Of a stretch of DNA of 64,000 nt, positions 20,404-62,500 are shown one piece after another. How positions within the stretch are numbered: position 1 is the first letter of the stretch; each line of letters opens with the position of its first letter. The stretch is from Lamellibrachia satsuma (Eukaryota; Annelida; Polychaeta; Sabellida; Siboglinidae). The notes under the pieces are model-generated. The model was given only the letters and a program-made list of their open reading frames with translations. It did no database searches and was not told the origin of the DNA. The DNA is taken from the NCBI GenBank assembly GCA_033239005.1, contig BSQZ01000034.1, positions 6,705,001 through 6,769,000 on the forward strand, written 5' to 3'. A program made the translations under genes and the position numbers.

Positions 20404-23400
20404 GCTCCCTGGTGCCACATCAGGTGATATAGAGGGCGTTGTCATGGCAACGGCACAATTGAGAGTCATCGTCACCCGCGCGATCGACCCTTTCAACTTC
20501 TGGGCGCGTATTGGAACAGGTAAGTGTCATCAGAAACTGAGATGTCCAACCTTAAGATAATAACTATTTAGTAATTTTAATTGTGTGTGTTTTAATTTAT
20601 AAAAAAATCCTTTTAATATATCTTGGTAATAATTTTAACTGTGTTTGTTTTTATGTATTATTTTAAATAGATTTAGCAACATATTCAATGTAAACTATGT
20701 AACAGAAATTATATAATTGAAATGTAACAGAAATGTTGTAATATTAAGTATTGTGACACTGTCACGCAATGGTCGTGTAAATAAATAATACCATTGGAGA
20801 TGATTGGACTATAACAGGCAGTTAACATGTTTAATTTGCATTCCATTACTGAATGTATATCATATACAGTACATACATATCAAATTTCATAATTACCAAA
20901 ACAAAAAAATTAATAATAACCAATGCCTCGCTACACTGCGAGTATAACTCAAATTAAGATCAAATAACAATGAAAACGATTCACATTATCGCTCGAACGC
21001 GGTTCACCTATCGCTTGATAACGATTCACCTATCGCTCGAACACCGTCGACACACTACTTGTGTCACTGGTTCCCAGACAGTCAATCTTTTCTTGCCGCT
21101 CAACCGACCACACCCTCACACGATGCTCCATCTCGCCCTCTGCTGCATATATGTCTCTCGGCTATTCAGCCTAAGCTGGTTCTGTATGATACAATTTAAC
21201 CCAATCACCACGCTGACAGAAAATAATTACCATATACACGTGAATAACAACACAATGATAATCATATCAATTTACCATTTAAATTATACCAAATACGATT
21301 ACAAGGTGTGTCACCCGACAAGCTCTATGCCAACAATGGCCAACACGCTTTACGCAAATAATGGCTTAATTCTATGGTAATTCTAAAAACCATATTTACA
21401 GTAGATGACCCTTCAACTTCTAACATGTATTAACACATAGGACATATGAATATATCTAAATATATACACACATATTATCAGCTAACAACGTAATAGATAA
21501 AACTTACGCCAGTTGCTTCTGGCATTGTTCAAATTGTGCTGCGTCACACCATTTGTTACATCTGCTCCTTGCACACTTCCAACCGAGTTATTTTCTCGTA
21601 ACTTTGTTAGCTTCACGCAGCTTTCTACTGACACAATTTCAGTATAGTCACTTTCTACTGACACAATTTCAGTATATGTTTTATGAATCGCAGTATAGTT
21701 GCCTTCTCACAACTTATCACCGGCCATCTCTTAACTATTGTAGTATAGTTGCCTTCTTGCAACTTTTCACCGGCCGTCTCTGAACTATTGCAGCCGCCTC
21801 CTCGCGAACCACAATCGACCGACTGTCTCTTAACTATTGCAGCCGCCTCCTCGCGAACTACAATCGAGCGACCCCGGTTAGAACAGTCTCCAGCGTATAT
21901 ATAGTCTACCAGTCAATGATATGCTTCAGTAAACATTACCCGCCTGTTACATAACATAATACCCATTGTTAGGATTACCGCCCAGCCTGGCTCGACAATA
22001 GCTGCAGAAAACCTTGTTACATAAGATAGTGGCTATCACTAGGACTCTAGTATAACCATAAAATAAATGTATAATATACACATTGTCACAAGAGGGGTGT
22101 GTGTAGCATAGTAAATGTTGTAACATAAATGTTATGACATAAGTTATGTAGCATAAAACAGATAATAAAGTGCAAATGCTGAAACAAATTATATAACTTT
22201 AATATTGTACACAAATGCTGTAGTATAAATGCAGTAACACCTGTAACAACGGCTGGTTCTCTCCTTTACAGATGCGAGTCTTGCCCAGTTCGATGAGTTT
22301 GAGAACTTAGTCGATGATTACTGCAGTGCCTTTGAAGCAACGCATGAACAATGCGGTCCCCTTCGCACCAATCAGCTCATCCTCGTAAAATGCTCCACCA
22401 CTGGCAGGTGGCGCCGTGCAGTGGTCGTGTCCGTCGACAGGTCAGCTGGTTACTTGTAATACACTTACATTCAAACATAGTTTTTTGCTGATGATTTGGT
22501 GATTTTTTGCAGTTCTGCAAACTGGTATTCGACAGTTTCAACCTATTAAGCGTACACGTCCTAATTAGCAGACGCCCCTCTTTTATTAGTAGGCTGATCA
22601 TTTGATGGTTTCAGAAATACCTGCTCAATAAAACAATGCAGGAGTAGCAAACCAATCACTAATTGTTGGGATGTCCCATTGGGGTGGCTATGGTTTCACA
22701 CATTTCTAGCACACACAAAGGGCATTTCAGATATGTGCAGGCAGGTAACACATGTTATCTTAGAGTAGGAGCTGTAACCTGTATTGAAAGTCAGCTCATC
22801 ACACCCCATAGTTTGATTTGAGCAGAATTTTTTTTCAAATTGCCATTTGCCACACGTCATGATAACTTTTCCATGCAGACCCTTTGTTCAAATTTGGACA
22901 AATGTTCTCACCTTAGATCTTCTGTGTATCAATGTATGTTTAGCTTCTACAAAGACCGAGTTCATATACAATTCTAGAGTTGAATTGAAGACCGCATTGG
23001 AAGTAAAACCAGATCGCACTAGCACAAGAAAAATAGGTTCAAATCATATCATTTCAATTTCTATTCAACTTACTCAAAATCTTTTGATTCAAATTCAAAT
23101 TCCGCTTGGTAAAAATCTTTCAATTCAAATTCAGGAATTTAATTGAATAATTCCAATTCATTTTTGAATTCACCCCAGCCCTTGATACAGTGCTCTGTAA
23201 GATTGTACCTTTACATAGTACACCCATTTAGACCCAAATAACAAGTTTGGTTTGCTATTGATGGCTGATGTGTTACTTTACCCGTATGTTGCCAGTGAGG
23301 CGGACGAGGTGGACGTGTTCTATGTGGACTACTCAACCACAGAGTTCGTGCCACTGACCTCCATCGTGGACGTCGTGCCGAGTCACTTCGAAGCCTTCCC

Positions 23401-31000: not shown

Positions 31001-34000
31001 TACACATCACTTTCATATAGTAAATACACATCACTTTCATATAGTAAATACACATAACTTTCATATAGTAAATACACATCACTTGCATATAGTAAATACA
31101 CATCACTTTCATATAGTAAATACACATCACTTTCATATAGTAAATACACATAACTTTCATATAGTAAATACACATCACTTTCATATAGTAAATACACATC
31201 ACTTTCATATAGTAAATACACATCACTTTTATATAGTAAATACACATCACTTTCATATAGTAAATACACATAACTTTCATATAGTAAATACACATAACTT
31301 TCATATAGTAAATACACATAACTTTCATATAGTAAATACACATAACTTTCATATAGTAAATACACATAACTTTCATATAGTAAATACACATCACTTTTAT
31401 ATAGTAAATACACATAACTTTCATAAAGTAAATACACATAACTTTCCTGTAGTAAATACACATCACTTTTATATAGTAAGTGCACATCACTTTTATATAA
31501 TAAATGCACATCACTTTCATATAGTAAATACACATCTCTTTCCTATAGTAAATACACATCACTTGTGTCTCGTTTACCCTACTTTGCCTCAGTCTACTCA
31601 GCTGCAAATGAGTACAAACACTGTTTGGAAGGTACCTGCGATGGACTAGTGTCCCGTCCAGGAGAGTCAGGATAACTGCACTCTAAGTTGCTTCGCACTA
31701 CAGAAACCAGGTTTAAGCACTTCATGGCTTCCTAAGGCGTAATGCCTGGGGGATGACTTTACCTTTTTTATATAGTAAATGCACATTACTTTTATATAGT
31801 AAATGCACATCACTTTAATATAGTAAATACACATCACTTTCATATAGTAAATACACATCACTTTCAGTTGCCCCTATGCTAATGTGTCTCATTTGCCATG
31901 TTTATTTATTCCATTTTGACATTGTAATTACTAATTTAAGTAAATCCCATTAAAACATTAAAACTGCCAGTGCAGCTCCTTTACAAGTCACAGTGGTTCT
32001 TATAAGTTAACACATTTTTGTATGTTTTTATTATTTAAATTGTGTTGCTGGCATTTAAATTATATCAGTGAACCAGGCATGAAACAGAACAGTTTTTGTT
32101 CTCTTAGACAGAGAAATCGCCACACTTCTCCCGATCCACTCAAGCAAGGAAATCATCCTTCTCCTGGCCTCCTAAGAAAAGGAAAGGACCATGACTCTCC
32201 TGACCGTCTAAGGAAGGAACATCGCCACTCTCCCGACCCACTAAGGCAGGGGAAACCCCACTCCCCTGCCCTGCTCAGGCACGGAAATCGCCACACATCT
32301 CCTGACCGCCTAAGGAAGGGAAATCGCCACACATCTCCTGACCCACTAAGGAAGGGCAATCGACACACATCTCCCGACGTTGCAAGGCAGGGAAGTCGCG
32401 ACACCTCTCCTGACCACCGAGGAGGCAACTTTGGAGACGGGGACGGCAGCTACAGCAAGGCACTCATAAAGCCCAAGTCTTCCAAGAAGAGGGATAAACT
32501 TAAAGGGAAGCCTCCCCTGCCAACCAGCCCAGAACAACGCCAGAATGAATATGACTGGCACAGCTGTCAGTTCACATTCAAAGTTGGCAAGGTTCGTGTG
32601 TGGTTTGTAAATTTTATAAAATTCATCCAAAACAACAAACTATCTTTCAGTCAACTTTATTTCAGCTTCTTCCTGGTGCTACAGCACATGTAATTCGTTA
32701 ACCAAAATATGCCATAATGTTATCACCGACATCGACTTGTATGTGTATATATATATATATATATACACAAGTATATAATTTTATCTTACTCAAAATAATA
32801 ATATCTGCCATTTTGTGAGTATTTTGTCTAATTTGAAGAAAAAAAATTTATTAATTCGTGAAAAGTCATCTTAGAATTAATAGTTTTAATCAAATTATTT
32901 GATATTTCAACTGCAAATAAACTGTGTTCACACTGTCTGGATGCTAGATTCTGGAAGACTTCACTGAAGAAACATGTCCGTCAAAGTCAAGAGAACTTCA
33001 CAAGTTGTTGTCTGCAGGTAAGTCACCTAGAAACAATTTGTCTTCCTATCATAGTGCACGTGTGCCTTTCGTCCGTGACATTATTTTATGGATTTCTTGA
33101 AAGATAAAATGTACTTCAACTAAATTATTTTGTGATCTATTGGAATGTTGACGTGCTAATGAAACATATTTTATTTTGATACTAATATGTGTAATTAACA
33201 GTGATCTTTCTAAGATCTTTAATATAAGTTATGCTTAGTGAAATATTTGTCTGTTGTTTCAGTTTCCCCTCAACTTCAAGATTTGCCAGGAGATGGCGTT
33301 GTCTACTTGTGTCTCGACACTATTGTCCGAACGGCCATCACAGACAAGATTCCCATTGATCTTGCAGTGAAGCTGGTCGAATCTCTTTCTGGTCAGCTTT
33401 CATTTGAGTATAATTAAGGATTTCAACATTCTACAAGATGTGTTGCTCTGATAATTCTCGAAAATGAATATATTTGTTCAGTCATGTTGAACAAAGTAAA
33501 ATTTTCCGTGAACATAGGTATGTACCAAACAGTTTTATGTTTTTGTAAGTTTCTGTCTTATTGTTAAAAAACTGCTAAACGGTTCTTTTTTTGTGTGGAG
33601 ACAAATATTCCTGAGAAGCAACATATCTATCAGTATTAATAGTTTTGTTTTTAATTAATAAATGACATTTCATGAGCTCAGTGGAATATATGGTGCAATA
33701 TAGCAATATCACGTCATAAATCTATTACATTATGAGAATACATCTGTATTTGGAGTTTTTTATGTCGAGCATGAACTAAAGAGGTGGGATCGATAGGGGT
33801 GTGATGTCACATCCAGTCAGAAACCACTGTTGCAATCTCGACCATTTCAGGATGAAATTAAATTGCCTAATAAGAAATGTATCAATGATATATGTAACTA
33901 TCCATAAGTGTTTACATGGACTTAAACACAACACTGCATTTGTAAAGCAGAACTGAGACTTCAAAAGGGACTACTTTATTCCAACAGGATTTGACGAGTT

Positions 34001-37000: not shown

Positions 37001-40000
37001 GAGCCTAGTGCTACATGCACAGCCCTGTCAAGAGCCTAGTGCTACATGCACAGCCCTGTCAAGAGCCTAGTGCTACATGCACAGCCCTGTCAAGAGCCTA
37101 GTGCTACATGCACAGCCCTGTCAAGAGCCTAGGGCTACATGCACAGCCCTGTCAAGAGCCTAGGGCTACATGCACAGCCCTGTCAAGAGCCTAGTGCTAC
37201 ATGCACAGCCCTGACAAGAGCCTAGTGCTACATGCACAGCCCTGACAAGAGCCTAGTGCTACATGCACAGCCCTGTCAAGAGCCTAGTGCTACATGCACA
37301 GCCCTGTCAAGAACCTAGTGCTACATGCACAGCCCTGTCAAGAGCCTAGTGCTACATGCACAGCCCTGTCAAGAGCCTAGTGCTACATGCACAGCCCTGT
37401 CAAGAGCCTAGTGCTACATGCACAGCCCTGTCAAGAGCCTAGTGCTACATGCACAGCCCTGTCAAGAGCCTAGTGCTACATGCACAGCCCTGACAAGAGC
37501 CTAGTGCTACATGCACAGGCCTGACAAGAGCCTAGTGCTACATGCACAGCCCTGTCAAGAGCCTAGTGCTACATGCACAGCCCTGTCAAGAGCCTAGTGC
37601 TACATGCACAGCCCTGTCAAGAGCCTAGTGCTACATGCACAGCCCTGTCAAGAGCCTAGTGCTACATGCACAGCCCTGTCAAGAGCCTAGTGCTACATGC
37701 ACAGCCCTGACAAGAGCCTAGTGCTACATGCACAGCCCTGTCAAGAGCCTAGTGCTACATGCACAGCCCTGTCAAGAGCCTAGTGCTACATGCACAGCCC
37801 TGTCAAGAGCCTAGTGCTACATGCACAGCCCTGTCAAGAGCCTAGTGCTACATGCACAGCCCTGTCAAGAGCCTAGGGCTACATGCACAGCCCTGACAAG
37901 AGCCTAGTGCTACATGCACAGCCCTGTCAAGAGCCTAGTGCTACATGCACAGCCCTGTCAAGAGCCTAGTGCTACATGCACAGCCCTGTCAAGAGCCTAG
38001 GGCTACATGCACAGCCCTGTCAAGAGCCTAGTGCTACATGCACAGCCCTGTCAAGATGATGGATATAATTTCATGCCCCAAAATCATGCCAAACTGCCGA
38101 TTTCACGAAGCGTTTGTACCTTTGGAAGGAACTCATGTGGGCGTTTGACGTAAATCATATAACTTGGAACAATCGTAGAAAAGATGCCTAGCGTTGCTAA
38201 CAGACGTATGTAACTAAGACCTGTCATTGTTTTGAGTTATGTAATCTATGTCAAACGTCCACATAGATTCCCTCATAAAAAATGTCCACACCAGGGAATT
38301 TTATAGTTTTTTTATGGAAATGTTGGTTAGAATATGTTGCAGTGCATCGTTTAGCAGGTTGATATACATTGGTGCAACTATGAGGGAACATATGAATTGT
38401 TCTACACTGGCACGGAGAGAAAGCACTTTCAAAATTACATCAGGCACTATTCCCAAGTTTGGCTACGTGACATAAATATTGATTCATCCTCGCAGGCAAC
38501 TCAGTCGGACCGACACGGCACCAGCGAGCTGTTCTCTGAGTGCCTGTGTGACTTCATCAGCGTCGGTGGCACAGCGCTAGAGCATCATTTTCCTCATGAC
38601 AATGAAACTCTCTTCAAGTGTATCAGAGAGAAAGTACTCTCTAACGATGTACCAAGGTATGAGCCCTGCTGTTGGCAGTTATTGTTGTTTTAGATCAGTT
38701 TAAAAAAAATTACTCAGTATTTTACGCTTCATTTCAATCTGTCTCCGTAATTCATTTTTACACTTGTCTCATTTCAGACTCATAAAAAAATTTAATCTAG
38801 TATTATCCTCCAACATGGAAGCGCATTTGTGCAAATGTGGTATTTAGTTTTAATAAAATTATTCAACGAACTATTCGGCCAAACCAAATGTGGAGAAGAA
38901 AGGGTAAAAGTGGCTATGTACAGCAGCTGTACACACTATGACAAGGCTATTCACACTTTCGCTAGTTATACCCATCCTAATGATCATTTAAAAATCAATT
39001 TAAACAAAAATATATGGTCAGTTATTGAGCCAACTGAGCCCATTACCTGTAGGTCAGTTAAGGAGAGGATGTTGTGTGTTTTGTCCTATAGATCAGTTAA
39101 GAAGAGGATGCTGTGTGTTTTGTCCTGTAGGTCAATTAAGGAGAAGATGCTGTGTGTTTTGTCCTATAGATCAGTTAAGAAGAGGATGCTGTGTGTTTTG
39201 TCCTGTAGGTCAATTAAGGAGAAGATGCTGTGTGTTTTGTCCTGTAGGTCAGTTAAGGAGAGGATGTTGCGTGTTTTGTCCTGTAGGTCAGTTAAGGAGA
39301 GGATGCTGCGTGTTTTGTCCTATAGATCAGTTAAGAAGAGGATGTTGCGTGTTTTGTCCTGTAGGTCAGTTAAGAAGAGGATGTTGCATGTTTTGTCCTG
39401 TAGGTCAGTTAAGAAGAGGATGTTGCGTGTTTTGTCCTGTAGGTCAGTTAAGGAGAGAATGTGTTTTGTCCTGTAGGTCAGTTAAGGAGAGGATGTTGTG
39501 TGTTTTGTCCTGTAGGTCAGTTAAGGAGAAGATGTTGTGTGTTTTGTCCTGTAGGTCAATTAAGGAGAAGATGCTGTGTGTTTTGTCCTGTAGGTCAATT
39601 AAGGAGAAGATGCTGTGTGTTTTGTCCTGTAGTCTAGTTAAGGAGAGGATGTTGTGTGTTTTGTCTTGCAGGCTAGTTAAGGAGAGGATGTTGTGTGTTT
39701 TGTCTTGTAGTCTAGTTAAGGAGAGGGTGTTGTGTGTTTTATCTTGTAGTCTAGTTAAGGAGAGGATGTTGTGTGTTTTGTCTTGCAGGCTAGTTAAGGA
39801 GAGGATGTTGTGTGTTTTGTCTTGTAGTCTAGTTAAGGAGAGGATGTTGTGTGTTTTATCTTGTAGTCTAGTTAAGGAGAGGATGTTGTGTGTTTTGTCT
39901 TGCAGGCTAGTTAAGGAGAGGATATTGTGTGTTTTGTCTCGCAGGCTAGTTAAGGAGAGGATGCTGTGTGTTTTGTCTTGTAGTCTAGCTAAGGAGAGGA

Positions 40001-43000
40001 TGTTGTGTGTTTTGTCCTGTAGTCTAGTTAAGGACAGGATGTTGTGTGTTTTGTCTCGCAGGCTAGTTAAGGAGAGGATGTTGTGTGTTTTGTCTCGCAG
40101 GCTAGTTAAGGAGAGGATGTTGTGTGTTTCGTCTTGTAGGCCAGTTAAGGAGAAGATGCTGAAGCTTCTTGTCAACCAACATCTGACTGCCAGTGCTACG
40201 CAAGGGGTTGACACCAGTGTTGTCACCATGGAGACAGTGGCGGTTACCACGGCAACCAAAAAGATACAGACTGAGGAGACAGTGCGAGTGAAGACGGCGA
40301 ACTCAGCAATTCAAGTCGAATTGTTGCCATGTGCCAGTGAGTGACGTGATCATACAGATGTGGTTTATTGAAGATTAAGTTATGTACATGCAGTTTGACT
40401 TCTAGTTTTTAATGAAGTTGTGAACTGCAATATAAACGATAATCCAATGTGATCGTTGACATGTACGTGTGTGTGTGTGTTTGTATTGTATCCAGTGAGA
40501 TCAATGAACACGTGCATGCATGCGTGCGTGTGTGCGTGCATGCGTGTTAATTCTGCCAACTACCTCGCACACCAAAACGAATGAATGAATGAAATCTCTA
40601 CTTCCAGGTTCTTCGAGTGACCAGTCTGCACTTCGAAGAGCTAGCTGTGGCTTGGAAGTAGATAGTGTCAAGTCAAGTGACCGTGACCCCTGTGACCCAT
40701 ACGGCCGTGTCAAGGTCATGCTGTCTGACCTCCGACTGGAAGAACTTCTTGATTTGTTTCACTCCAATGCTGTTAGGGTATGTCGTGGTCACCTTAAAAA
40801 TGGCTAACTTTCAAGTTGACCCAGAGTGACATACAGTAGTTCTCCAGTTATGTGTCCACCCTCCAAATGTCACTCAAATTCTTGGCATTGATGACCTGGC
40901 CAGTGAATTCCAAGTTGTTTCGCATTGTGTAATATATAGTGAATACAATAGCCTGTTATTGCAATATTACATTTATAGGTTATAATAATTGTGGTCTAAA
41001 TAAATACTGCACTTGTTTTGTAAGGGGACACGCACTGCAGCCTCTGTCTCTGTCTTGTAAGGGACACGCGCTACAACCTCTGTCTCTGTCTTGTAAGGGA
41101 CACGCGCTGCAGCCTCTGTCTCTGTCTTGTAAGGGACACGCGCTACAACCTCTGTCTCTGTCTTGTAAGGGACACGCGCTGCAGCCTCTGTCTCTGTCTT
41201 GTAAGGGACACGCGCTGCAACCTCTGTCTCTGTTTTGTAAGGGACACGCGCTGCAACCTCTGTCTCTGTCTTGTAAGGGACACGCGCTGCAACCTCTGTC
41301 TCTGTCTTGTACGGGGACTCGCGCTGCAACCTCTGTCTCTGTCTTGTAAGGGACACGCGCTGCAGCCTCTGTCTCTGTCTTGTAAGGGACACGCGCTGCA
41401 GCCTCTGTCTCTGTCTTGTAAGGGACACGCGCTGCAACCTCTGTCTCTGTCTTGTAAGGGACACGGGCTGCAGCCTCTGTCTCTGTCTTGTAAGGGACAC
41501 GCGCTGCAACCTCTGTCTCTGTCTTGTAAGGGACACGCGCTGCAACCTCTGTCTCTGTCTTGTAAGGGACACGCGCTGCAGCCTCTGTCTCTGTCTTGTA
41601 AGGGACACGCGCTGCAGCCTCTGTCTCTGTCTTGTAAGGGACACGCGCTGCAGCCTCTGTCTCTGTCTTGTAAGGGACACGCGCTGCAGCCTCTGTCTCT
41701 GTCTTGTAAGGGACATGCGCTGCAGCCTCTGTCTCTGTCTTGTAAGGGACATGCGCTGCAGCCTCTGTCTCTGTCTTGTAAGGGACACGCGCTGCAGCCT
41801 CTGTCTCTGTCTTGTAAGGGACACACGCTGCAGCCTCTGTCTCTGTCTTGTAAGGGACACGGGCTGCAGCCTCTCTCTCTGTCTTGTAAGGGAGTCAGTG
41901 CATCGAGTGTAATCGTGTTTGAACAAACAAGATTTGCTCAGAATAGAGCATTGTGTTGCACATATTGTTTTCAGGACTCTGTGCTGGACGTTGACTTGGC
42001 TGACCTGAAGGATCTGCTGAAGGAGTGCGGCGTGCGACCCGGGGAGCTGCTCGAGATCAAGACTTATCTCGCCAAGAAAGGTTAGTAACAGAGCCATTTA
42101 TACGTGCTGCGTTTCTACACTAAGAGGTACAATTTTTGACTCGCACCAATCCCAACTTGAGCTTTGATGAACGGTCATGAATGCAGCGCACTGATTGGAT
42201 GCAGTGTCAAACCATTGGTGAACAGCTGGTCATATTGGAGCTGATGTAAACAGGTCTTAGCAGAACCACAAGGAAAGTGTTCATGTCCCGACCTTTATCG
42301 TCTCCATTCACCCCACACCCTCCATCACACCTGATGGCGCTTTATCATCTCCATTCACCCCACACCCTCTATCACACTTGATGGGGCTTTATCGTCTCCA
42401 TTCACCCCGTACCCTCCATCACACTTGATGGGGCTTTATCATCTCCATTCACCCTGCACCCTCCATCACACTTGATGGGGCTTTATCGTCTCCATTCACC
42501 CCACACCCTCTATCACACTTGATGGGGCTTTATCGTCTCCATTCACCCCGTACCCTCCATCACACTTGATGGGGCTTTATCATCTCCATTCACCCTGCAC
42601 CCTCCATCACACTTGTTGAAACTTTATCGTCTCCATTCATCTCCACCCTCTATCACACTTGATGGGGCTTTATCGTCTCCATTCACCCCGCACCCTCTAT
42701 CACACTTGTTGAAACTTTATCGTCTCCATTCACCCCACACCCTCCATCACTCTTGTTGAAACTTTATCGTCTCCATTCATCTCCACCCTCTATCACACTT
42801 GATGGGGCTTTATCGTCTCCATTCACCCCGCACCCTCTATCACATTTGATGGGGCTTTATCGTCTCCATTCACCCCGCACCCTCTATCACACTTGTTGAA
42901 ACTTTATCGTCTCCATTCACCCCGCACCCTCTATCACACTTGTTGAAACTTTATCGTCTCCATTCATCTCCACCCTCTATCACACTTGTTGAAACTTTAT

Positions 43001-46000
43001 CGTCTCCATTCACCCCGCACCCTCTATCACACTTGTTGAAACTTTATCGTCTCCATTCACCCCGCACCCTCTATCACACTTGATGGACTTTATCGTCTCC
43101 ATTCACGCAGCACCCTCTATCACACTTGTTGAAACTTTATTGTCTCCATTCATTTCCACCCTCTATCACACTTGTTGAAACTTTATCATCTCCATTCACC
43201 CCGCACCCTCTATCACACTTGATGGGGCTTTATCGTCTCCATTCATCTCCACCCTCTATCACACTTGATGGGGCTTTATCGTCTCCATTCACCCCGCACC
43301 CTCTATCACACTTGATGGGGCTTTATCATCTCCATTCACCCCGCACCCTCTATCACACTTGTTGAAACTTTATCGTCTCCATTCACCCGGCACCCTCTAT
43401 CACACTTGTTGAAACTTTATCGTCTCCATTCACCCCGCACCCTCTATCACACTTGTTGAAACTTTATCGTCTCCATTCACCCCGCACCCTCTATCACACT
43501 TGTTGAAACTTTATCGTCTCCATTCACCCCGCACCCTCTATCACACTTGTTGAAACTTTATCGTCTCCTTTCACCTTGCACCCTCTATCACACTTGTTGA
43601 AACTTTATCGTCTCCATTCACCCCGCACCCTCTATCACACTTGTTGAAACTTTATCGTCTCCATTCACCCCGCACACTCTATCACACTTGTTGAAACTTT
43701 ATCGTCTCCATTCATCTCCACCCTCTATCACACTTGTTGAAACTTTATCGTCTCCATTCACCCCGCACCCTCTATCACACTTGTTGAAACTTTATCGTCT
43801 CCATTCATCTCCACCCTCTATCATACTTGTTGAAACTTTATCGTCTCCATTCACCCCGCACCCTCTATCACACTTGTTGAAACTTTATCGTCTCCATTCA
43901 TCTCCACCCTCTATCACACTTGTTGAAACTTTATCGTCTCCATTCACCTTGCACCCTCTATCACACTTGTTGAAACTTTATCGTCTCCATTCACCCTGCA
44001 CCCTCTATCACACTTGTTGAAACTTTATCGTCTCCATTCATTTCCACCCTGTATCACACTTGTTGAAACTTTATCGTCTCCATTCACCCCGCACCCTCTA
44101 TCACACTTGATGGGGCTTTATCGTCTCCATTCACACAGCACCCTCTATCACACTTGTTGAAACTTTATCGTCTCCATTCATTTCCACCCTCTATCACACT
44201 TGTTGAAACTTTATCATCTCCATTCACCCCGCACCCTCTATCACACTTGATGGGGCTTTATCGTCTCCATTCATCTCCACCCTCTATCACACTTGATGGG
44301 GCTTTATCGTCTCCATTCACCCCGCACCCTCTATCACATTTGATGGGGCTTTATCATCTCCATTCACCCCGCACCCTCTATCACACTTGTTGAAACTTTA
44401 TCGTCTCCATTCACCCTGCACCCTCTATCACACTTGTTGAAACTTTATCGTCTCCATTCACCCCGCACCCTCTATCACACTTGTTGAAACTTTATCGTCT
44501 CCATTCACCCCGCACCCTCTATCACACTTGTTGAAACTTTATCGTCTCCATTCACCCCGCACCCTCTATCACACTTGTTGAAACTTTATCGTCTCCATTC
44601 ACCCCGCACCCTCTATCACACTTGTTGAAACTTTATCGTCTCCATTCACCCCGCACCCTCTATCACACTTGTTGAAACTTTATCGTCTCCATTCACCCCG
44701 CACCCTCTATCACACTTGTTGAAACTTTATCGTCTCCATTCACCCCGCACCCTCTATCACACTTGTTGAAACTTTATCGTCTCCATTCACCCCGCCCTCT
44801 ATCACACTTGTTGAAACTTTATCGTCTCCATTCACCCCGCACCCTCTATCACACTTGTTGAAACTTTATCGTCTCCATTCACCTTGCACACTCTATCACA
44901 CTTGTTGAAACTTTATCGTCTCCATTCACCCCGCACCCTCTATCACACTTGTTGAAACTTTATCGTCTCCATTCACCCCGCACCCTCTATCACACTTGTT
45001 GAAACTTTATCGTCTCCATTCACCCCGCACCCTCTATCACACTTGTTGAAACTTTATCGTCTCCATTCACCCCGCACACTCTATCACACTTGTTGAAACT
45101 TTATCGTCTCCATTCACCCCGCACCCTCTATCACACTTGTTGAAACTTTATCGTCTCCATTCACCCCGCACCCTCTATCACACTTGTTGAAACTTTATCG
45201 TCTCCATTCACCCCGCACACTCTATCACACTTGTTGAAACTTTATCGTCTCCATTCACCCCGCACCCTCTATCACACTTGTTGAAACTTTATCGTCTCCA
45301 TTCACCCGGCACCCTCTATCACACTTGTTGAAACTTTATCGTCTCCATTCACCCCGCACCTCTATCACACTTGTTGAAACTTTATCGTCTCCATTCACCC
45401 CGCACCCTCTATCACACTTGTTGAAACTTTATCGTCTCCATTCACCCCGCACCCTCTATCACACCTGTTGAAACTTTATCGTCTCCATTCACCCGGCACC
45501 CTCTATCACACTTGTTGAAACTTTATCGTCTCCATTCACCCCGCACCCTCTATCACACTTGTTGAAACTTTATCGTCTCCATTCACCCCGCACACTCTAT
45601 CACACTTGTTGAAACTTTATCGTCTCCATTCATCTCCACCCTCTATCACACTTGTTGAAACTTTATCGTCTCCATTCACCCCGCACCCTCTATCACACTT
45701 GTTGAAACTTTATCATCTCCATTCACCCCGCACCCTCTATCACACTTGATGGGGCTTTATCGTCTCCATTCACCCCGCACCCTCTATCACACTTGATGGG
45801 GCATTATCATCTCCATTCACCCCGCACCCTCTATCACACTTGTTGAAACTTTATCGTCTTCATTCATCTCCACCCTCTATCACACTTGATGAGAATCTCT
45901 CATCTAGTACTGTGAGCAGTGCAACCCATAATCAACCTGTAGGGTATCATTCGTAGTTATAAATACTAATAAATTCAGTATTGCAAAATCCTGTAAGACA

Positions 46001-47251
46001 GTTGTTCTGTTTACCAATGGAAATCGTACGTTCCCTTTAATAATGCTAACTTTACTACATATAATCAATGTCTTTGCAGCTAAATGTCAAGCGAGTGCCA
46101 ATGCAGCGAACAGAACGGTTGATGCGAACAGCGTCAACGTGGACGTATGGACCAGCAGTGCACCAGCATATAGTTCTGTCTGTGCTATGCCATTGCCACA
46201 AGCGATGCCAGTACTGATCTCCCCGGAAGACTTCGTCCGCCCTAGATCTGCCACTGACTTCAGTGCAGCCAGCACGCCAATGGCTATAGACACAGTGCAG
46301 TCAATTCAGCATCCCACAATTCCTGACACACTCAGTGTTAATCCAGTAGTTGTGGCACCCTCTGTTTCACCTCAGAAACAGTGTTCTGTTCCGCCAGGTT
46401 TCAATGTCGACATTACTGCAACTTCGGCTCATAAACGAACGGACGACTTGCAGTTCAGCGACAGTGACACTTTGGACAGTTTCGATGACCGAGATGGTGA
46501 CGCGTCACCTGATTGTTGGCGAGATGACGGCCTACAAAGGCAGCTGCCTGTTTCTAGTAATGTCACAAATACTGCCGCAGACACCCGTGTCACTGTGTCG
46601 GCCAGGGTTGCCACTCCTGTGGGTTCAGCAGAATGTAATGTCCCTGCTGTGCAACCTGCAACTTTTATACAAAGTGACACCGATGTCCCGTCCTGTTGGT
46701 TTGACCGGGAGGATGCATTGGCTGCACCCGAATTGCCAAAACTGCCGACTCCGAACGCCGCCAAAAACACTTACAAAACGAAATACTCTCCATCGTCTAT
46801 CAAACACATTGTTGACAGCTGGCTAGAACCTAACAACTCCAACTCAAATCGCACAAATGTTCCCAAGTCTGACTCTAGTGGCAAACCGCCAGCCGAGTTT
46901 CATTCCCACGGTGATGGGGACGCGTGGGGTCACATGACTATTCCGACAAATCGTTCACCAGGCACCATGAGCACCTCGCCAGACTCGACAGACTGGCCAA
47001 CTGTCACGGAAACTGTGACTATGCCAAAGGGGAAGACCACTGTGGCATTGGACACCAGCCGAGTAGGTTTTGGGAATCGTCGGAAGAAGCCCTCCTCATT
47101 CCCCATGGAGACACGACGGGAAGAAGCGGCTGTGGAACCAATAAAACACTCCTTCGGCATGTGCCAGAAGCGAGTCTGCACGGTCTGCGGGTCTGAGGAC
47201 CATCTTATCTATGACTGTCCACAGGGGACCCGAAGTCTGTTCTTCAACTAA
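20404..47251 (+). CDS. Tudor / MIF4G-like / SAM-like / CCHC zinc-knuckle protein, 21 exons
   Basis: Exons: 20404-20519, 22272-22440, 23296-23440, 23817-23938, 24984-25041, 26469-26502, 26866-26955, 28515-28583, 29005-29124, 30007-30208, 32108-32591, 32948-33017, 33263-33391, 33988-34052, 34860-34951, 36665-36725, 38496-38656, 40140-40336, 40608-40777, 41975-42080, 46080-47251. Every junction is GT-AG and every phase matches. From the ATG at 20,444 (G at -3 and +4) the sum is 3,792 nt, 1,263 codons plus stop. The first exon is open upstream of that ATG, so an earlier start is possible. Domains: Tudor about 5-190, SP repeats 362-470, MIF4G-like about 520-730, SAM-like about 815-873, CCHC 1240-1253. 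Tudor domains read methylated arginines and MIF4G domains scaffold translation and RNA factors, so an RNP-granule or translational role is inferred. No orthologue is recognised. Confidence 0.82.
20520..22271 (+). other. Intron 1 of the Tudor gene
   Basis: A 1.75-kb intron. It contains short local duplications at about 21,700-21,870 (CAGCCGCCTCCTCGCGAAC occurs twice) and a weak mobile-element look from about 20,755 onward (GTGACACTGTCACG palindrome, GC-poor body). No coding segment recognised. Confidence 0.45.
23979..24690. repeat. 54-bp minisatellite, about 13 copies, in an intron
   Basis: The unit contains TTGTATTATCAGTGGTCGG and GATGTGTCATGTGGTACATC. 54 is a multiple of three, so all three plus-strand frames stay open and produce false ORFs of over 200 codons. 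It begins about 40 bp after the donor of exon 4. Confidence 0.95.
25124..26300. repeat. 25-bp minisatellite with shorter variants, about 48 copies
   Basis: The unit contains GTATGACATGAGTGCTATGA. A recurrent variant lacks two bases (CTAGTATG instead of CTGTAGTATG) and is interspersed in a semi-regular pattern in the centre. It lies in the intron after exon 5, starting about 80 bp past the donor. Confidence 0.95.
26469..30208 (+). CDS. Exons 6-10: acidic linker and basic SP/RG segment
   Basis: Five small exons encode residues about 191-361. They carry an acidic linker (KKVDDEEAAGDS), a segment FDLIAGVPRSPCDTIGDIRS with helix-like TENTEKLAQKD, and then a strongly basic exon (30007-30208) containing RSPQRHQRSKH, RTGRPPRFAEWVEE and SSPRTRRRG. 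No domain is recognised, and this is probably a disordered RNA- or protein-binding linker. Exon 10 ends in phase 2 and completes its Gly codon in exon 11. The acceptor of exon 10 sits at the edge of a 33-bp repeat series. Confidence 0.72.
27314..28470. repeat. 35-bp minisatellite, about 33 copies
   Basis: The unit contains TTCTTTGTCTGACACTTCAA and GCTAGCCACACCATG. Variants (ACACCATG, ACATCGTG, GCTACACC) form blocks: CCACACCATG early, CCACATCGTG in the middle, GCTACACCATG late. The array ends about 45 bp before the acceptor of exon 8. Confidence 0.95.
29283..29425. repeat. Three tandem copies of an approximately 47-bp unit
   Basis: TTGACTCTGTTTACTAGCCA and GTGTATTTGTAGGACTAG recur three times in the intron after exon 9. 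Confidence 0.8.
29690..29805. repeat. 23-bp tandem repeat, five copies
   Basis: Copies of CTTTACAGCTGCTGTCACGA with a short extension, in the intron before exon 10. Confidence 0.85.
29862..30006. repeat. Approximately 33-bp repeat series ending at the exon 10 acceptor
   Basis: Four copies of a pyrimidine-containing unit with TTCTTTGCCATTGTC followed by CACCAGAGATTAA. The last copy is the real splice acceptor (TTCTTTGCCATTGTCTTCCTAG, then AGATAAGAAG). The series therefore appears to duplicate the 3' splice site and the first exon bases. Confidence 0.7.
30418..30625. repeat. 13-bp tandem repeat, about 16 copies
   Basis: Units of TTGTTTACATAAG, with TTGTTTACATTAG variants toward the right. It lies in the intron after exon 10, directly followed by the 24-bp array. 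Confidence 0.95.
30633..31571. repeat. 24-bp minisatellite, about 39 copies
   Basis: The unit contains CATATAGTAAATACACATCA. 24 is a multiple of three, so false ORFs of over 300 codons arise on both strands. The array is interrupted at 31,572-31,764 and resumes for four units. Confidence 0.95.
31572..31764 (+). mobile_element. SINE-like insert within the 24-bp array
   Basis: A roughly 190-bp non-repeat segment containing TTTGCCTCAGTCTACTCAGC, GATGGACTAGTGTCCCGTCC and CTTCGCACTACAGAAACCAG. Array units flank it on both sides, so it either interrupted the array or seeded it. A related piece, on the opposite strand, borders the 18-bp array near 48,830. I do not see a Pol III A/B box with confidence, so the class is unproven. 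Confidence 0.5.
31765..31866. repeat. 24-bp minisatellite, four further copies
   Basis: Same unit as 30,633-31,571, resuming after the SINE-like insert. Confidence 0.9.
32108..32591 (+). CDS. Exon 11: basic Ser-Pro tandem-repeat region
   Basis: Encodes about eight imperfect copies of a 12-residue module of the type LRKGNRHTSPDP (residues about 362-470), followed by SSKKRDKLKGKPPLPTSP and the start of the helical domain (NEYDWHSCQFTFKVGK). Each module carries a T/S-S-P site suited to proline-directed kinases, together with clustered Arg/Lys/His. The DNA is itself repetitive, with 33-39 bp units in frame, so the copy number probably varies. Here a tandem repeat is genuinely coding, since it is bounded by phase-matched splice sites on both sides. 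Confidence 0.8.
32948..40336 (+). CDS. Exons 12-18: MIF4G-like helical domain
   Basis: Seven exons encode residues about 524-781. Helical segments include LCLDTIVRTAITDKIPIDLA, FPDILRNLLLKYHGTTI, LQCRNFVFFLAMLFNRAS, DCIISSLNKWAVFN and ETLFKCIREKVLSNDVP, closing with VKEKMLKLLVNQH. The spacing and hydrophobic pattern, especially ILRNLLLKYH after a helix pair and the following FVFFLAMLF helix, recall the MIF4G repeats of eIF4G, CTIF and PAIP1-type proteins. That assignment is by eye and remains tentative. Residues after about 735 (TTATKKIQTEETVRVKTANS) look like linker. The last exon's acceptor is duplicated 28 times upstream. Confidence 0.6.
34490..34668. repeat. 23-bp tandem repeat, about eight copies
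   Basis: Units with TGCACACTAGGTGGTGCATA, in the intron after exon 14. The word GCACACTAGGTGGTGC is partly self-complementary. Confidence 0.9.
35018..36030. repeat. 37-bp minisatellite, about 27 copies
   Basis: The unit contains GGCACCATGTAGTTCCAG and GGTTCCTAACCTGGGGA. The last three or four copies are a different, shorter variant (ACCAGGGGGCAACGTTTAG). It lies in the intron after exon 15, starting about 65 bp past the donor. Confidence 0.95.
36876..38056. repeat. 31-bp minisatellite, about 38 copies
   Basis: The unit contains AGAGCCTAGTGCTACATGCA and CAGCCCTGTCA. It is very homogeneous, with scattered GTCA/GACA and AGTG/AGGG variants. Homogeneity suggests recent expansion. It lies in the intron after exon 16. 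Confidence 0.96.
38830..39052. other. Intron sequence before the acceptor array
   Basis: Ordinary AT-rich intron following exon 17 (donor at 38,657). It resembles 19,975-20,040 read on the opposite strand (CAAATGTGGTATTTAGTTT, then an ATTATTCAACGAA-type stretch), so it may be a dispersed element fragment. Confidence 0.4.
39053..40139 (+). repeat. 39-bp minisatellite built from a 3' splice site and exon start, 28 copies
   Basis: Each unit is an exon-like start (GTCAGTTAAGGAGAGGATG) followed by an intron-like end (GTGTGTTTTGTCCTGTAG). The genuine exon 18 begins with the same words (GCCAGTTAAGGAGAAGATG) after TTTCGTCTTGTAG. Units start at 39,053 with 39-bp spacing. One unit (39,443-39,476) is 34 bp, and the 17 units from 39,477 are in frame with exon 18. 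Every unit ends in TAG or CAG. Confidence 0.93.
40608..42080 (+). CDS. Exons 19-20: SAM-like domain
   Basis: The joined exons read LRLEELLDLFHSNAVR then DSVLDVDLADLKDLLKECGV and RPGELLEIKTYLAKK. This follows the sterile-alpha-motif order of a first helix, a short loop, a 'D..L..L.eeDL..L GV' core, a G in the turn, and a long last helix. SAM domains oligomerise or bind RNA hairpins. Which applies here cannot be told. The intron between the two exons contains the 36-bp array. Confidence 0.65.
41018..41895. repeat. 36-bp minisatellite, about 24 copies
   Basis: The unit contains CTTGTAAGGGACACGCGCTG and CAGCCTCTGTCTCTGT. It lies in the intron between the two SAM-like exons. Each unit carries a pyrimidine tract ending TTGTAAG and a CTGCAG, so cryptic splice sites are plentiful. 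36 is a multiple of three, so frames of 200-370 codons on both strands are artefacts. Confidence 0.95.
42285..45895. repeat. 47-bp minisatellite with higher-order structure, about 77 copies
   Basis: A 3.6-kb array. The unit contains ACTTTATCGTCTCCATTCAC and CACCCTCTATCACACTTG. There are two main unit classes, ending GTTGAA or GATGGGG, plus a CATCTCCA variant. Three-unit blocks repeat at 42,345-42,626. The segments starting at about 43,110 and about 44,138 repeat the same order of variants. It occupies most of the last intron of the Tudor gene. Confidence 0.96.
46080..47251 (+). CDS. Exon 21: Ser/Thr-rich tail and CCHC zinc knuckle
   Basis: A single 1.17-kb terminal exon encodes residues 874-1263. 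Most is low-complexity Ser/Thr/Asp/Pro sequence with no fold evident, including an acidic patch (FSDSDTLDSFDDRDGD) and a short conserved-looking block SPSSIKHIVDSWLEPN. The C-terminus has CTVCGSEDHLIYDC, a C-x2-C-x4-H-x4-C zinc knuckle of the retroviral-nucleocapsid/CNBP type used for single-stranded nucleic-acid binding. The stop is TAA at 47,249-47,251, after RSLFFN. The lack of tandem repeats in this exon contrasts with the 3.6-kb array in the preceding intron. Confidence 0.85.
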
Positions 47252-59500: not shown

Positions 59501-62500
59501 TACATCTCTATACATCTCTACTCCCTCTATACATCTCTACACATCTCTTCTCCCTCTATACGTATCTATACATCTCTACTTCCTCTATACATCTGTATAC
59601 ATCTCTACTCCCTCTATACATCTCAACATCTCTACTCCCTCTAAACATCTCTACACATCTCTTCTCCCTCTATACATATCTACTCCCTCTATACATCTCT
59701 ATACATCTCTACTCCCGCTATACATCTCTACACATCTCTTCTCCCTCTATACATACTCCCTCTATACATCTCTACTCCCTCTATACATCTCTACACATCT
59801 CTTCTCCCTCTATACGTATCTATACATCTCTACTCCCTCTATACATCTCTATACATCTCTACTCCCTCTATACATCTCTACACATCTCTACTCCCTCTAT
59901 ACATCTCTACACATCTCTTCTCCCTCTATACATCTCTATACATCTCTACTCCCTCTATACATCTCTATACATCTCTACTCCCGCTATACATCTCTATACA
60001 TCTCTACTCCCGCTATGCATCTCTATACATATGTATACATCTCTATACATCTCTATACATTTCTACTCCCTCTATACATCTCTATACATCTCTTCTCCCG
60101 CTATACATCTCTACACATCTCTTCTCCCTCTATACGTATCTATACATCTCTACTCCCTCTATACATCTCTATACATCTCTACTCCCTCTATACATCTCTA
60201 CACATCTCTTCTCCCTCTATACTCTATACATCTCTACTCCCTCTATACATCTCTATACATCTCTACTCCCTCTATACATCTCTATACATCTCTACTCCCT
60301 CTATACATCTCTATACATCTCTACTCCCTCTATACAGCTCTATACATCTCTCCAGTTCTCCCTTCTAAGTATTCCCCCTATAACTCGCACTGGTAACTAG
60401 ACGAGGAATACATTACCTGCTGTTGAGCGGTCTCTCTGACGACGATGTCGTGTAGGTCTCTCAGCCTGTCTGATTCTGACAGAAGGTCCGTCTATTGATG
60501 CACAACACACATTTAATTGTGACATATCAATATTCGCAGTATGGCCAGATTAAAATACAGATCGCTGCCCTTGCCTGTAGTCATGAATGCGGTACATAGG
60601 GATAGGTAGCTCTAAGTAGTAGGAAGAACAAGGCTATTCGGGCAGTGTCAAGTGGAAATTGTTGCAAACAACGATAGTTCCATATGGTAAATATGTTGTT
60701 GTCGTTATTATTATTTTTACAATCACGACGTCGAAGAGGACATCAACTTACAATACAACTTACGACTTGACTTGGAATTAAGAGAGATTACTCGAGACTT
60801 GACTTGGACTTGTAGGTCATTTACTTGAGATTTGACTTGGCAGTTTGAGACTTCACAACACGTCTGATGAACAGTGAATGTTTGTATGACGGATGTTTAG
60901 ATGCGTGTGCTTAAACATATTACGATGTCGCACAGGAAGTCAATGCAAAGATTTCAAAAATGACACCTAATTAGAAAAACGAGGAGATCAACTAACTACA
61001 TTTGCCAAACACTGTTGCATATGTTGATGTGGTGCGATATAATTAACAAGACTATTTTGAAAGAGGGAACTGCAACAGTCGAGTCTACTTTTAACAAGAG
61101 TCTACTTATAACAAGAGTCTACTTTTAACAAGAGTCTACTTATAACAAGAGTCTACTTATAACAAGAGTCTACTTATAACAAGAGCACAGACAACTACTG
61201 AAGAATACGGCGAAGATCGTCTGCAATGTTCGTCATCATGTCAAAGTTGTGCCGATCACAATATTTTTGTCATGTAGTGGATGTCAATACGTCGCCGTCA
61301 CCACGATCGTGTCGTCGACGTTATCTTTGATAATTTCGACGATGTTATATCCGTTGCCGTCTCCTTTGTGATAATGAAGATATCACTTTCGTTAGAGAGT
61401 AATAATTTACACTTACTTTTTTGGATAGACATACTGGACATATTGAAACTAAAACTAGGACTTACTTTGACCTTATTGTTGGTGCCGTCTGTTGCGACAT
61501 CTCTGATGTGCCTCGACATTTCCAACATGTCCGACTTCTCGATTTTTCTGTTCAACTGTGAAAATGAACTTAGTTGCTACAATTATTATACTTATGTTTA
61601 TATACATTTAACAATAGGGTAGTCTTCTCAGGTGCATGAATTTGGAACAATTCGTTAACAGGGTAATCCTCAGGCTTATTCGTTCACAGTCGAAGCTTAA
61701 GGTTACGGCTATAGCTATATGTATTGTATAAGTTTTCCAAATAGAAACCGGTTTACCAAAGGCATGCTGATGATCATTTAGTCAATGTGCCCAACGAGGA
61801 TGTCAATCGCCACATAAATTACGTGGGTTCAGGTCTGGCCTAATGTAAGCGTTTTATTTTTAGGACGCGGCCTCGACTTCTGGGGGCGCTCACAACATCA
61901 CTCGGTTAAAATTCCGCACGCTTAATTTCTCACAGTCGAAATCTCTTCGTTCAAAGTAATCGGCACAAGTACTTGCCACAGTCTTGGCGCCGATGTAGTT
62001 CAGCTGGACAGCGGACTTGAACTTTCGCAAGCGTGTCTCCGTCTCGTTGGACAACAGAGTCAATGACGTCAGGTCGACGTCGATCTTCTCCATCAAAGAG
62101 TCAACGTTGATCGACTGTAGCACGTGAAATAACATTATCTGCGGCATGACGAACAAATAAAAAACACGAGCGTCCTTCACCTTTACCTTGACGATATGTT
62201 GCTGACATCTTGTTTTTGTCAAAATGTTTAGCTCGTTTTCTCTATACACATACAGTGTACCTTTTTGGAAAAACATCATTTTACTTGTATCGATTTCACA
62301 GACGACTGTCTAAACGCTGTACACGAGAAACAGTAAAGCACCTGTTGCACTCGGTGACGTGTGAGATGATGTATTTGCTAAAGACGTCACATAGCGCATT
62401 AGGTAAATGTATAATTAAAATTCGTTGTTTTTAATTCACGGAGTAGGCAAATAACTACCGTTCCAATAACGTGATGTGAGCAAAATATGTCTACTGGTTA

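What the first reader, a model, noticed from the sequence alone, without database searches (positions are those of the whole stretch)
39053..40336. A minisatellite made of 28 tandem copies of a splice acceptor plus exon start
The 39-bp unit duplicates the junction at exon 18 of the Tudor/MIF4G-like gene: pyrimidine-rich end plus TAG/CAG, then the bases encoding R-(S/P)-V-K-E-(R/K)-M-L. All 28 upstream units keep AG at the junction. Because 39 is a multiple of three, the 17 units from 39,477 are open and in frame with exon 18. Use of any of them would add 13-residue modules (about SVKERMLCVLSCR) to the protein. The ten units and the 34-bp unit upstream of 39,477 would instead lead to a stop near 39,476. 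The array may therefore act as a length-variable reservoir of alternative 3' splice sites, or as a splicing decoy. This is seen directly. Usage is inferred.
Basis: partly seen in the sequence, partly recalled or inferred. Interest (0 to 1): 0.86.

Follow-up and report, generated by a model that had tools for sequence, protein, structure and literature searches.

The report
Tandemly copied splice acceptor in tubeworm gene
In a deep-sea tubeworm gene, the spot where an intron ends and an exon begins has been copied 28 times in a row; similar "mirage" repeats are known from lancelets, so the array is real and a good natural test of how cells choose splice sites, but nothing here shows that the copies are used.

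Summary
Twenty-eight tandem copies of an intron-exon junction (27 spacings of 39 bp, one of 34) precede the acceptor at 40,140. All keep AG. The 17 from 39,477 are in frame; the 11 before lead to a stop at 39,474-39,476. The genome is that of a tubeworm close to Lamellibrachia satsuma. Predicted proteins of L. satsuma and Ridgeia join the flanking exons directly, without 13-residue modules, so the exon start is old and the array derived.

Nothing shows that the copies are used or selected. AG invariance fits homogeneity (chance 0.26), variation shows no coding constraint (15 nonsynonymous : 5 synonymous), and minisatellites fill 47% of the mapped introns, so random seeding predicts about 1.4 junction-spanning arrays. 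The kind is already named: "mirages", described in lancelet genes, reportedly without disturbing regular splicing. Here it is in an annelid, with 28 copies.

Open point: how splicing avoids upstream acceptors that score as high or higher (six of 28 at 8.8-9.2 against 4.9). One testable reading: seven proximal copies are AG|GT sites that would regenerate a good donor, so wrong choices could be spliced out again.

The parts
38496..38656 (+). upstream exon (18th of the P0001-based model), donor AAG|GTATGA
   Evidence: tblastn of L. satsuma P0001, 93% identity; GT-AG refined
39046..40158 (+). 39-bp minisatellite, 28 upstream junction copies plus the overlap into the exon
39053..39476 (+). units 1-11; use of their acceptors leads to a stop at 39,474-39,476
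   Evidence: three of the 11 acceptors spliced in silico, plus the translation of the whole stretch
39053..39632 (+). units 1-15; 12 of 15 have AG|GT at the junction, 8 of these GTCAGT
39443..39476 (+). 34-bp unit that shifts the frame
39477..40139 (+). 17 units in frame with the downstream exon, 13 residues each
40106..40110 (+). TTAAG, the nearest match to a branch-point motif in the last unit (A 30 nt before the G of the AG)
   Evidence: one mismatch to yUnAy; motif recalled; columns 6-10 are TTAAG in 26 of 27 full units
40140..40336 (+). downstream exon (19th), donor CCA|GTGAGT

Best explanation
This is a mirage-type minisatellite: a 39-bp stretch holding the end of an intron and the first 22 nt of the exon was tandemly duplicated and then expanded by slippage or unequal exchange, as happened with other local sequences in 10 of the 12 mapped introns longer than 800 nt. 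Because the unit contains a whole 3' splice site (T-rich tract, AG, a possible branch point 30 nt upstream, a purine-rich exon start), the real acceptor at 40,140 has 28 near-identical competitors and probably takes its own branch point from the last unit. The main mRNA most likely uses 40,140, the copy nearest the exon's own donor (exon of 197 nt), with occasional +39n in-frame products from neighbouring copies and nonsense products from the proximal eleven. Shown: array, frames, relatives' protein junction. Inferred: origin by duplication, branch point, site choice. Not shown: any splicing.
For: Array and junction identity. Exon start conserved in relatives (L. satsuma SNDVPR-PVKEKML, Ridgeia SNDVAR-SVKENML), so the exon is the source and the relatives' models use the 40,140-type junction. 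Fourteen arrays fill 47% of the 19 introns counted; random seeding predicts 1.44 junction-spanning arrays, P(at least one) 0.79: (a first estimate on six arrays gave 0.72 and 0.55). No coding constraint, 15 N: 5 S against 25 N: 14 S for all possible transitions; 10:5 in the 17 in-frame units alone. AG invariance chance 0.26. Lancelet mirages of the same anatomy are said not to disturb regular splicing in PMC3087553 (section 16 read) and PMC3902484 (one passage).
Against: No RNA data here. Six upstream copies score 8.8-9.2 against 4.9 for 40,140 in a gene-own acceptor model, and six score 5.9-6.6 against 4.9 with human-like weights, so sequence strength alone does not explain exclusive use of 40,140. 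The relatives' proteins are predicted models, and it is not known whether those species carry the array. The left edge of the array shares only the last 7 nt of the intron part (39,046-39,052), so the T-rich 10 nt of the unit is not seen in either flank and its source is unexplained.
Confidence: 0.74

Rival explanations
1. Reservoir of alternative acceptors: several distal copies are used regularly and add 13-residue modules, so protein length varies with array length.
For: 17 copies open and in frame; six distal copies outscore the real site; the nearest lies 39 nt upstream.
Against: No coding constraint on the modules; no protein with them among 7,996 scored candidates of 477-1,517 residues, in a capped search that did not return P0001 either; relatives' models lack them.
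Confidence: 0.13
2. Self-correcting recursive splicing: proximal copies are AG|GT ratchet sites; if one is chosen, the joined AAG|GTCAGT is a good donor that is spliced again to a downstream acceptor, so the error disappears.
For: 12 of the first 15 copies are AG|GT; 8 would regenerate AAG|GTCAGT, scoring 6.8 against -0.9 to 8.1 for the gene's 20 donors left out one by one; 7 of these have acceptor scores of 2.8-4.9; one site of 39 AGGT in 16,343 intron bases outside the array reaches acceptor 2.8 and donor 6.0; two real donors of the gene are GTCAGC.
Against: Without the two GTC donors in the model the score falls to 4.7, mid-range; with human-like weights it is 4.4, like the upstream exon's own donor at 4.2. 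The acceptor score of copy 1 is poor (-7.7). The one comparable outside site lies in another minisatellite. The subtype pattern may be mere array history. No lariat or RNA data.
Confidence: 0.08
3. Decoy or poison acceptors: the proximal eleven copies draw off part of the transcripts into nonsense-mediated decay, lowering output in proportion to array length.
For: Units 1-11 run to the stop at 39,474-39,476 and units 2-11 have acceptor scores of 2.8-4.5.
Against: Copy 1, next to unique intron sequence, is very weak (-7.7); several distal copies score higher and lie closer to the exon's donor.
Confidence: 0.05

Closest known systems
Mirages of lancelets (BflGb6, BflGb9, Adh3, TnC, PGBD5)
   Same: Minisatellite-like tandem duplication of an intron-exon boundary; BflGb6 is the acceptor kind (3' end of intron plus 5' part of exon); many units keep splice signals.
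   Different: Annelid, not cephalochordate; 28 upstream copies rather than 3 and 6 in the two BflGb6 haplotypes; unit 39 bp (Adh3 10-72, BflGb6 150-160). Whether splicing is undisturbed is untested here.
Human CBS VNTR c.1444_1467+7(16_21)
   Same: 31-bp unit that spans an exon-intron boundary (24 exonic plus 7 intronic nt by its name), 16-21 copies, length polymorphic (passages).
   Different: Donor side, not acceptor.
IFI6 (G1P3) minisatellite
   Same: Repeat units serve as alternative splice sites, giving different mRNAs (passages).
   Different: Donor sites; use reported there, not shown here.
Tandem duplication across an intron-exon boundary in potato RdRp
   Same: Duplicate carries 3' intron end plus 5' exon part, with branch site, tract and AG (passages).
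   Different: Single duplication that produced a new intron; here no new intron is shown.

Membership tests
Mirage minisatellite | tandem unit spans an intron-exon boundary of a real gene | tested here: met
Mirage minisatellite | many units keep the splice signal | tested here: met
   28 of 28 keep AG
Mirage minisatellite | interior homogenised, boundary units divergent | tested here: inconclusive
   interior subtypes repeat in blocks by eye; no tree was made
Mirage minisatellite | length differs between haplotypes | not testable with these tools
   one assembly, in which this array was found once
Mirage minisatellite | regular mRNA unaffected | not testable with these tools
   no RNA; relatives' predicted proteins join directly
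Junction VNTR giving alternative splice donors (CBS, IFI6) | donor side of the exon | tested here: not met
   the repeated junction is the acceptor
Recursive splice (ratchet) sites | acceptor AG directly followed by GT | tested here: met
   12 of 28 upstream copies
Recursive splice (ratchet) sites | the GT is a usable donor after joining | tested here: inconclusive
   8 of 12 score 6.8, or 4.7 in a model without GTC donors; scores only
Recursive splice (ratchet) sites | stepwise removal in vivo | not testable with these tools
   no nascent RNA

The most novel reading that the evidence does not exclude
Junction-spanning minisatellites can be tolerated because their AG|GT units are recursive splice sites: choosing a wrong copy rebuilds a donor that is spliced onward until the last, GT-less acceptor is reached. 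Twenty-eight competing acceptors would thus still give one mature junction, and loss of the GT in distal units (16-28) would be what lets 13-residue modules leak into protein.
Probability: 0.08. Interest if true: 0.78.

Novelty: new member of a known kind. Interest (0 to 1): 0.42.

Why it matters
The spliceosome must pick one of 29 near-identical acceptors spaced 39 nt apart, in a gene whose two relatives' models show only the last junction. That is a natural titration of distance to the donor, branch-point position and AG competition. It also takes junction mirages, which the papers seen here describe from lancelets, into annelids, and suggests that they may be a by-product wherever minisatellites fill introns.

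Tried and rejected
Selection on the AG: rejected, chance 0.26. Translation of the modules: no constraint; no protein with them, which scored only the 7,996 candidates sharing most words, within 477-1,517 residues, and did not return P0001 either, so it is weak evidence. Related array elsewhere in the genome: one search gave two weak matches; L002 (C2) is a 39-bp array at 70% identity and L003 a CA-rich repeat; neither was shown to lie at a splice junction and both are taken as chance without a test. Cephalochordate origin, suggested by the mirage papers: dropped, since the homologues are tubeworm proteins; the GFP-family search also found nothing, but it warns that nothing rang in its controls. 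MIF4G domain: no Pfam hit, no PDB hit. First protein search found nothing; only proteins of 0.55-1.75 times its 339 residues were candidates. Paralogues: no match outside this locus at E 0.01 among 9 candidates. L065 looked like a second acceptor-type array but reads as an in-frame coding repeat inside an exon, by eye. Telomere next to the window: no TTAGGG or CCCTAA in the last 3 kb of the contig. A second haplotype and relatives' DNA could not be examined. One search gave only array lists; one search failed.

The splice models use human-like weights that I recalled; those are trained on 18-20 sites of this one gene. Four donors listed (22,456, 34,057, 34,952, 42,079) were misplaced; three were replaced from then on, and 42,079 was set to 42,080. 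The exon 1-2 junction fits poorly (40 of 63 residues) and was left out of the intron count. Arrays for one search were taken by hand, of about 100 bp or more; shorter or 2-copy repeats, some in the intron 20,520-22,271, were left out. The interval after 42,080 with its 77-copy array and the zinc-knuckle ORF (45,932-47,251) is not covered by P0001 and was not counted (its array was in the first estimate).

Full report
What is there. TRF finds a 39-bp array at 39,046-40,158, 28.7 copies, 89% matches. Split at the junction it gives 28 upstream AG junctions plus the real one at 40,140; 27 of 28 spacings are 39 bp, one unit at 39,443-39,476 is 34. Each full unit is 22 nt like the exon start plus 17 nt like the intron end; 17-20 of the 22 match the exon at 40,140.

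The gene and organism. A protein search with a longer, region-restricted query found two relatives: P0001 from Lamellibrachia satsuma (91% over 80% of the region) and P0002 from Ridgeia piscesae (67% over 62%). L. satsuma is a siboglinid annelid; that both are vestimentiferan tubeworms is recalled. P0001 matches the window in 20 stretches, read as exons. The window lies in a 735-Mb genome, at C34:6,705,001-6,769,000. A Tudor domain is found, and no match elsewhere in this genome at E 0.01 for the exons around the array. At the junction both relatives read straight through: SNDVPR-PVKEKML and SNDVAR-SVKENML. So the exon start is old, the array is derived from it, and the relatives' models use the 40,140-type junction.

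Why no special function is needed. Nineteen introns were counted; 14 arrays make up 9,008 of 19,018 intron bases (47%) and sit in 10 of the 12 introns longer than 800 nt and in none of the 7 shorter ones. If array seeds fall at random in the non-array part of each intron, 1.44 arrays should cross a junction by 8 nt or more, and at least one with probability 0.79; one is seen (an earlier count on six arrays gave 0.72 and 0.55). In the whole window 16,744 bases (26%) are minisatellite, against 2,676 of 106,056 (2.5%) in 30 kinase-exon loci of the same genome; those loci are centred on exons, so the contrast is rough. Within the array 20 of 39 columns are invariant, so two invariant AG columns have a chance of 0.26. 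In the exon's phase 15 of 20 variants are nonsynonymous, against 25 of 39 possible transitions; the other two phases give 11 and 12 nonsynonymous, 8 and 7 synonymous, 1 stop each. No protein among the 7,996 candidates scored carries the modules, a capped search.

What is still odd. In an acceptor model trained on the gene's other 18 acceptors, 40,140 scores 4.9 (the 18, each left out in turn, -5.5 to 9.2); units 17, 20, 23, 24, 27 and 28 score 8.8-9.2, the other 21 from unit 2 on 2.0-4.9, unit 1 -7.7; 0.3% of 943 other intronic AGs reach 4.9. Strength alone does not single out 40,140. The last unit's best branch-point-like motif is TTAAG, 30 nt before the AG, one mismatch from yUnAy, and it is in 26 of 27 full units, so each unit looks like a complete 3' splice site. 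Position (nearest to the exon's donor) is the simplest discriminator; that is inference. At its left edge the array shares only 7 nt of intron end (39,046-39,052); the source of the T-rich 10 nt of the unit is not seen in either flank.

A ratchet possibility. Twelve of the first 15 units are AG|GT. In eight the joined product would read AAG|GTCAGT, scoring 6.8 against -0.9 to 8.1 for the 20 real donors left out in turn; seven of the eight also have acceptor scores of 2.8 or more. One of 39 AGGT sites in 16,343 intron bases outside the array reaches acceptor 2.8 and donor 6.0, and it lies in another minisatellite. Leaving out the gene's two GTCAGC donors lowers the score to 4.7. Units 16-28 lack the GT. 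Wrong choices in the proximal half could therefore be spliced again; distal ones could not.

What is known. [quoted passage not shown] PMC3902484 (one passage) adds TnC and PGBD5. On the donor side are the CBS VNTR c.1444_1467+7(16_21) (passages of PMC2630376) and IFI6 (passages of PMC4526556); the original papers are not held. PMC4974935 (passages) shows a single duplication across an acceptor making a new intron in potato. My ten searches of one open-access library listed no annelid mirage and no recursive-splicing mirage in their titles and abstracts; some searches listed only 15 of 20, 15 of 1,156 and 12 of 2,501 papers.

Verdict. A real, well-described array; a mirage in another animal group with many copies; functional use unproven and not suggested by its evolution; a good natural experiment on 3' splice-site choice.

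Noticed in passing
L028:1895-2045 (C49): A kinase exon ends GAGAAC|GTATGT and the intron starts with about 9 tandem copies of GTATGTATGATTATGT, i.e. repeated donor-like sequence without exon copies.
   Followed up: partly
L065:1830-2018 (C45): 39-bp in-frame repeat (GKCQVYVLRVISP) at the start of a Tudor domain; reads as a coding repeat within an exon.
   Followed up: partly
window 2,059-61,185: 23 minisatellite arrays cover 26% of the window, ten times the share in 30 kinase loci; the window ends about 218 kb from the contig end.
   Followed up: partly
window 42,293-45,892: 47-bp array of 77 copies fills nearly all of the interval between the exon ending at 42,080 and the ORF at 45,932.
   Followed up: no
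window 32,113-32,415: Imperfect coding repeat (RKGNRHTSPDP type) within an exon, shared with L. satsuma.
   Followed up: no
P0002 residues about 461-636: The Ridgeia model holds a repeat (SPCQCQPSVPLSVPAVSPPVSA) where this gene has exons and arrays between 34,053 and 38,495; possibly a minisatellite translated by the gene predictor.
   Followed up: no
P0001 C-terminus; window 40,778-40,804: The L. satsuma model ends by reading into the intron (VCRGHLKNG) and lacks the exon at 41,976-42,080 that Ridgeia has.
   Followed up: no
window 62,470-63,760: ORFs in several frames resembling a broken reverse transcriptase (recognised by eye, no search).
   Followed up: no
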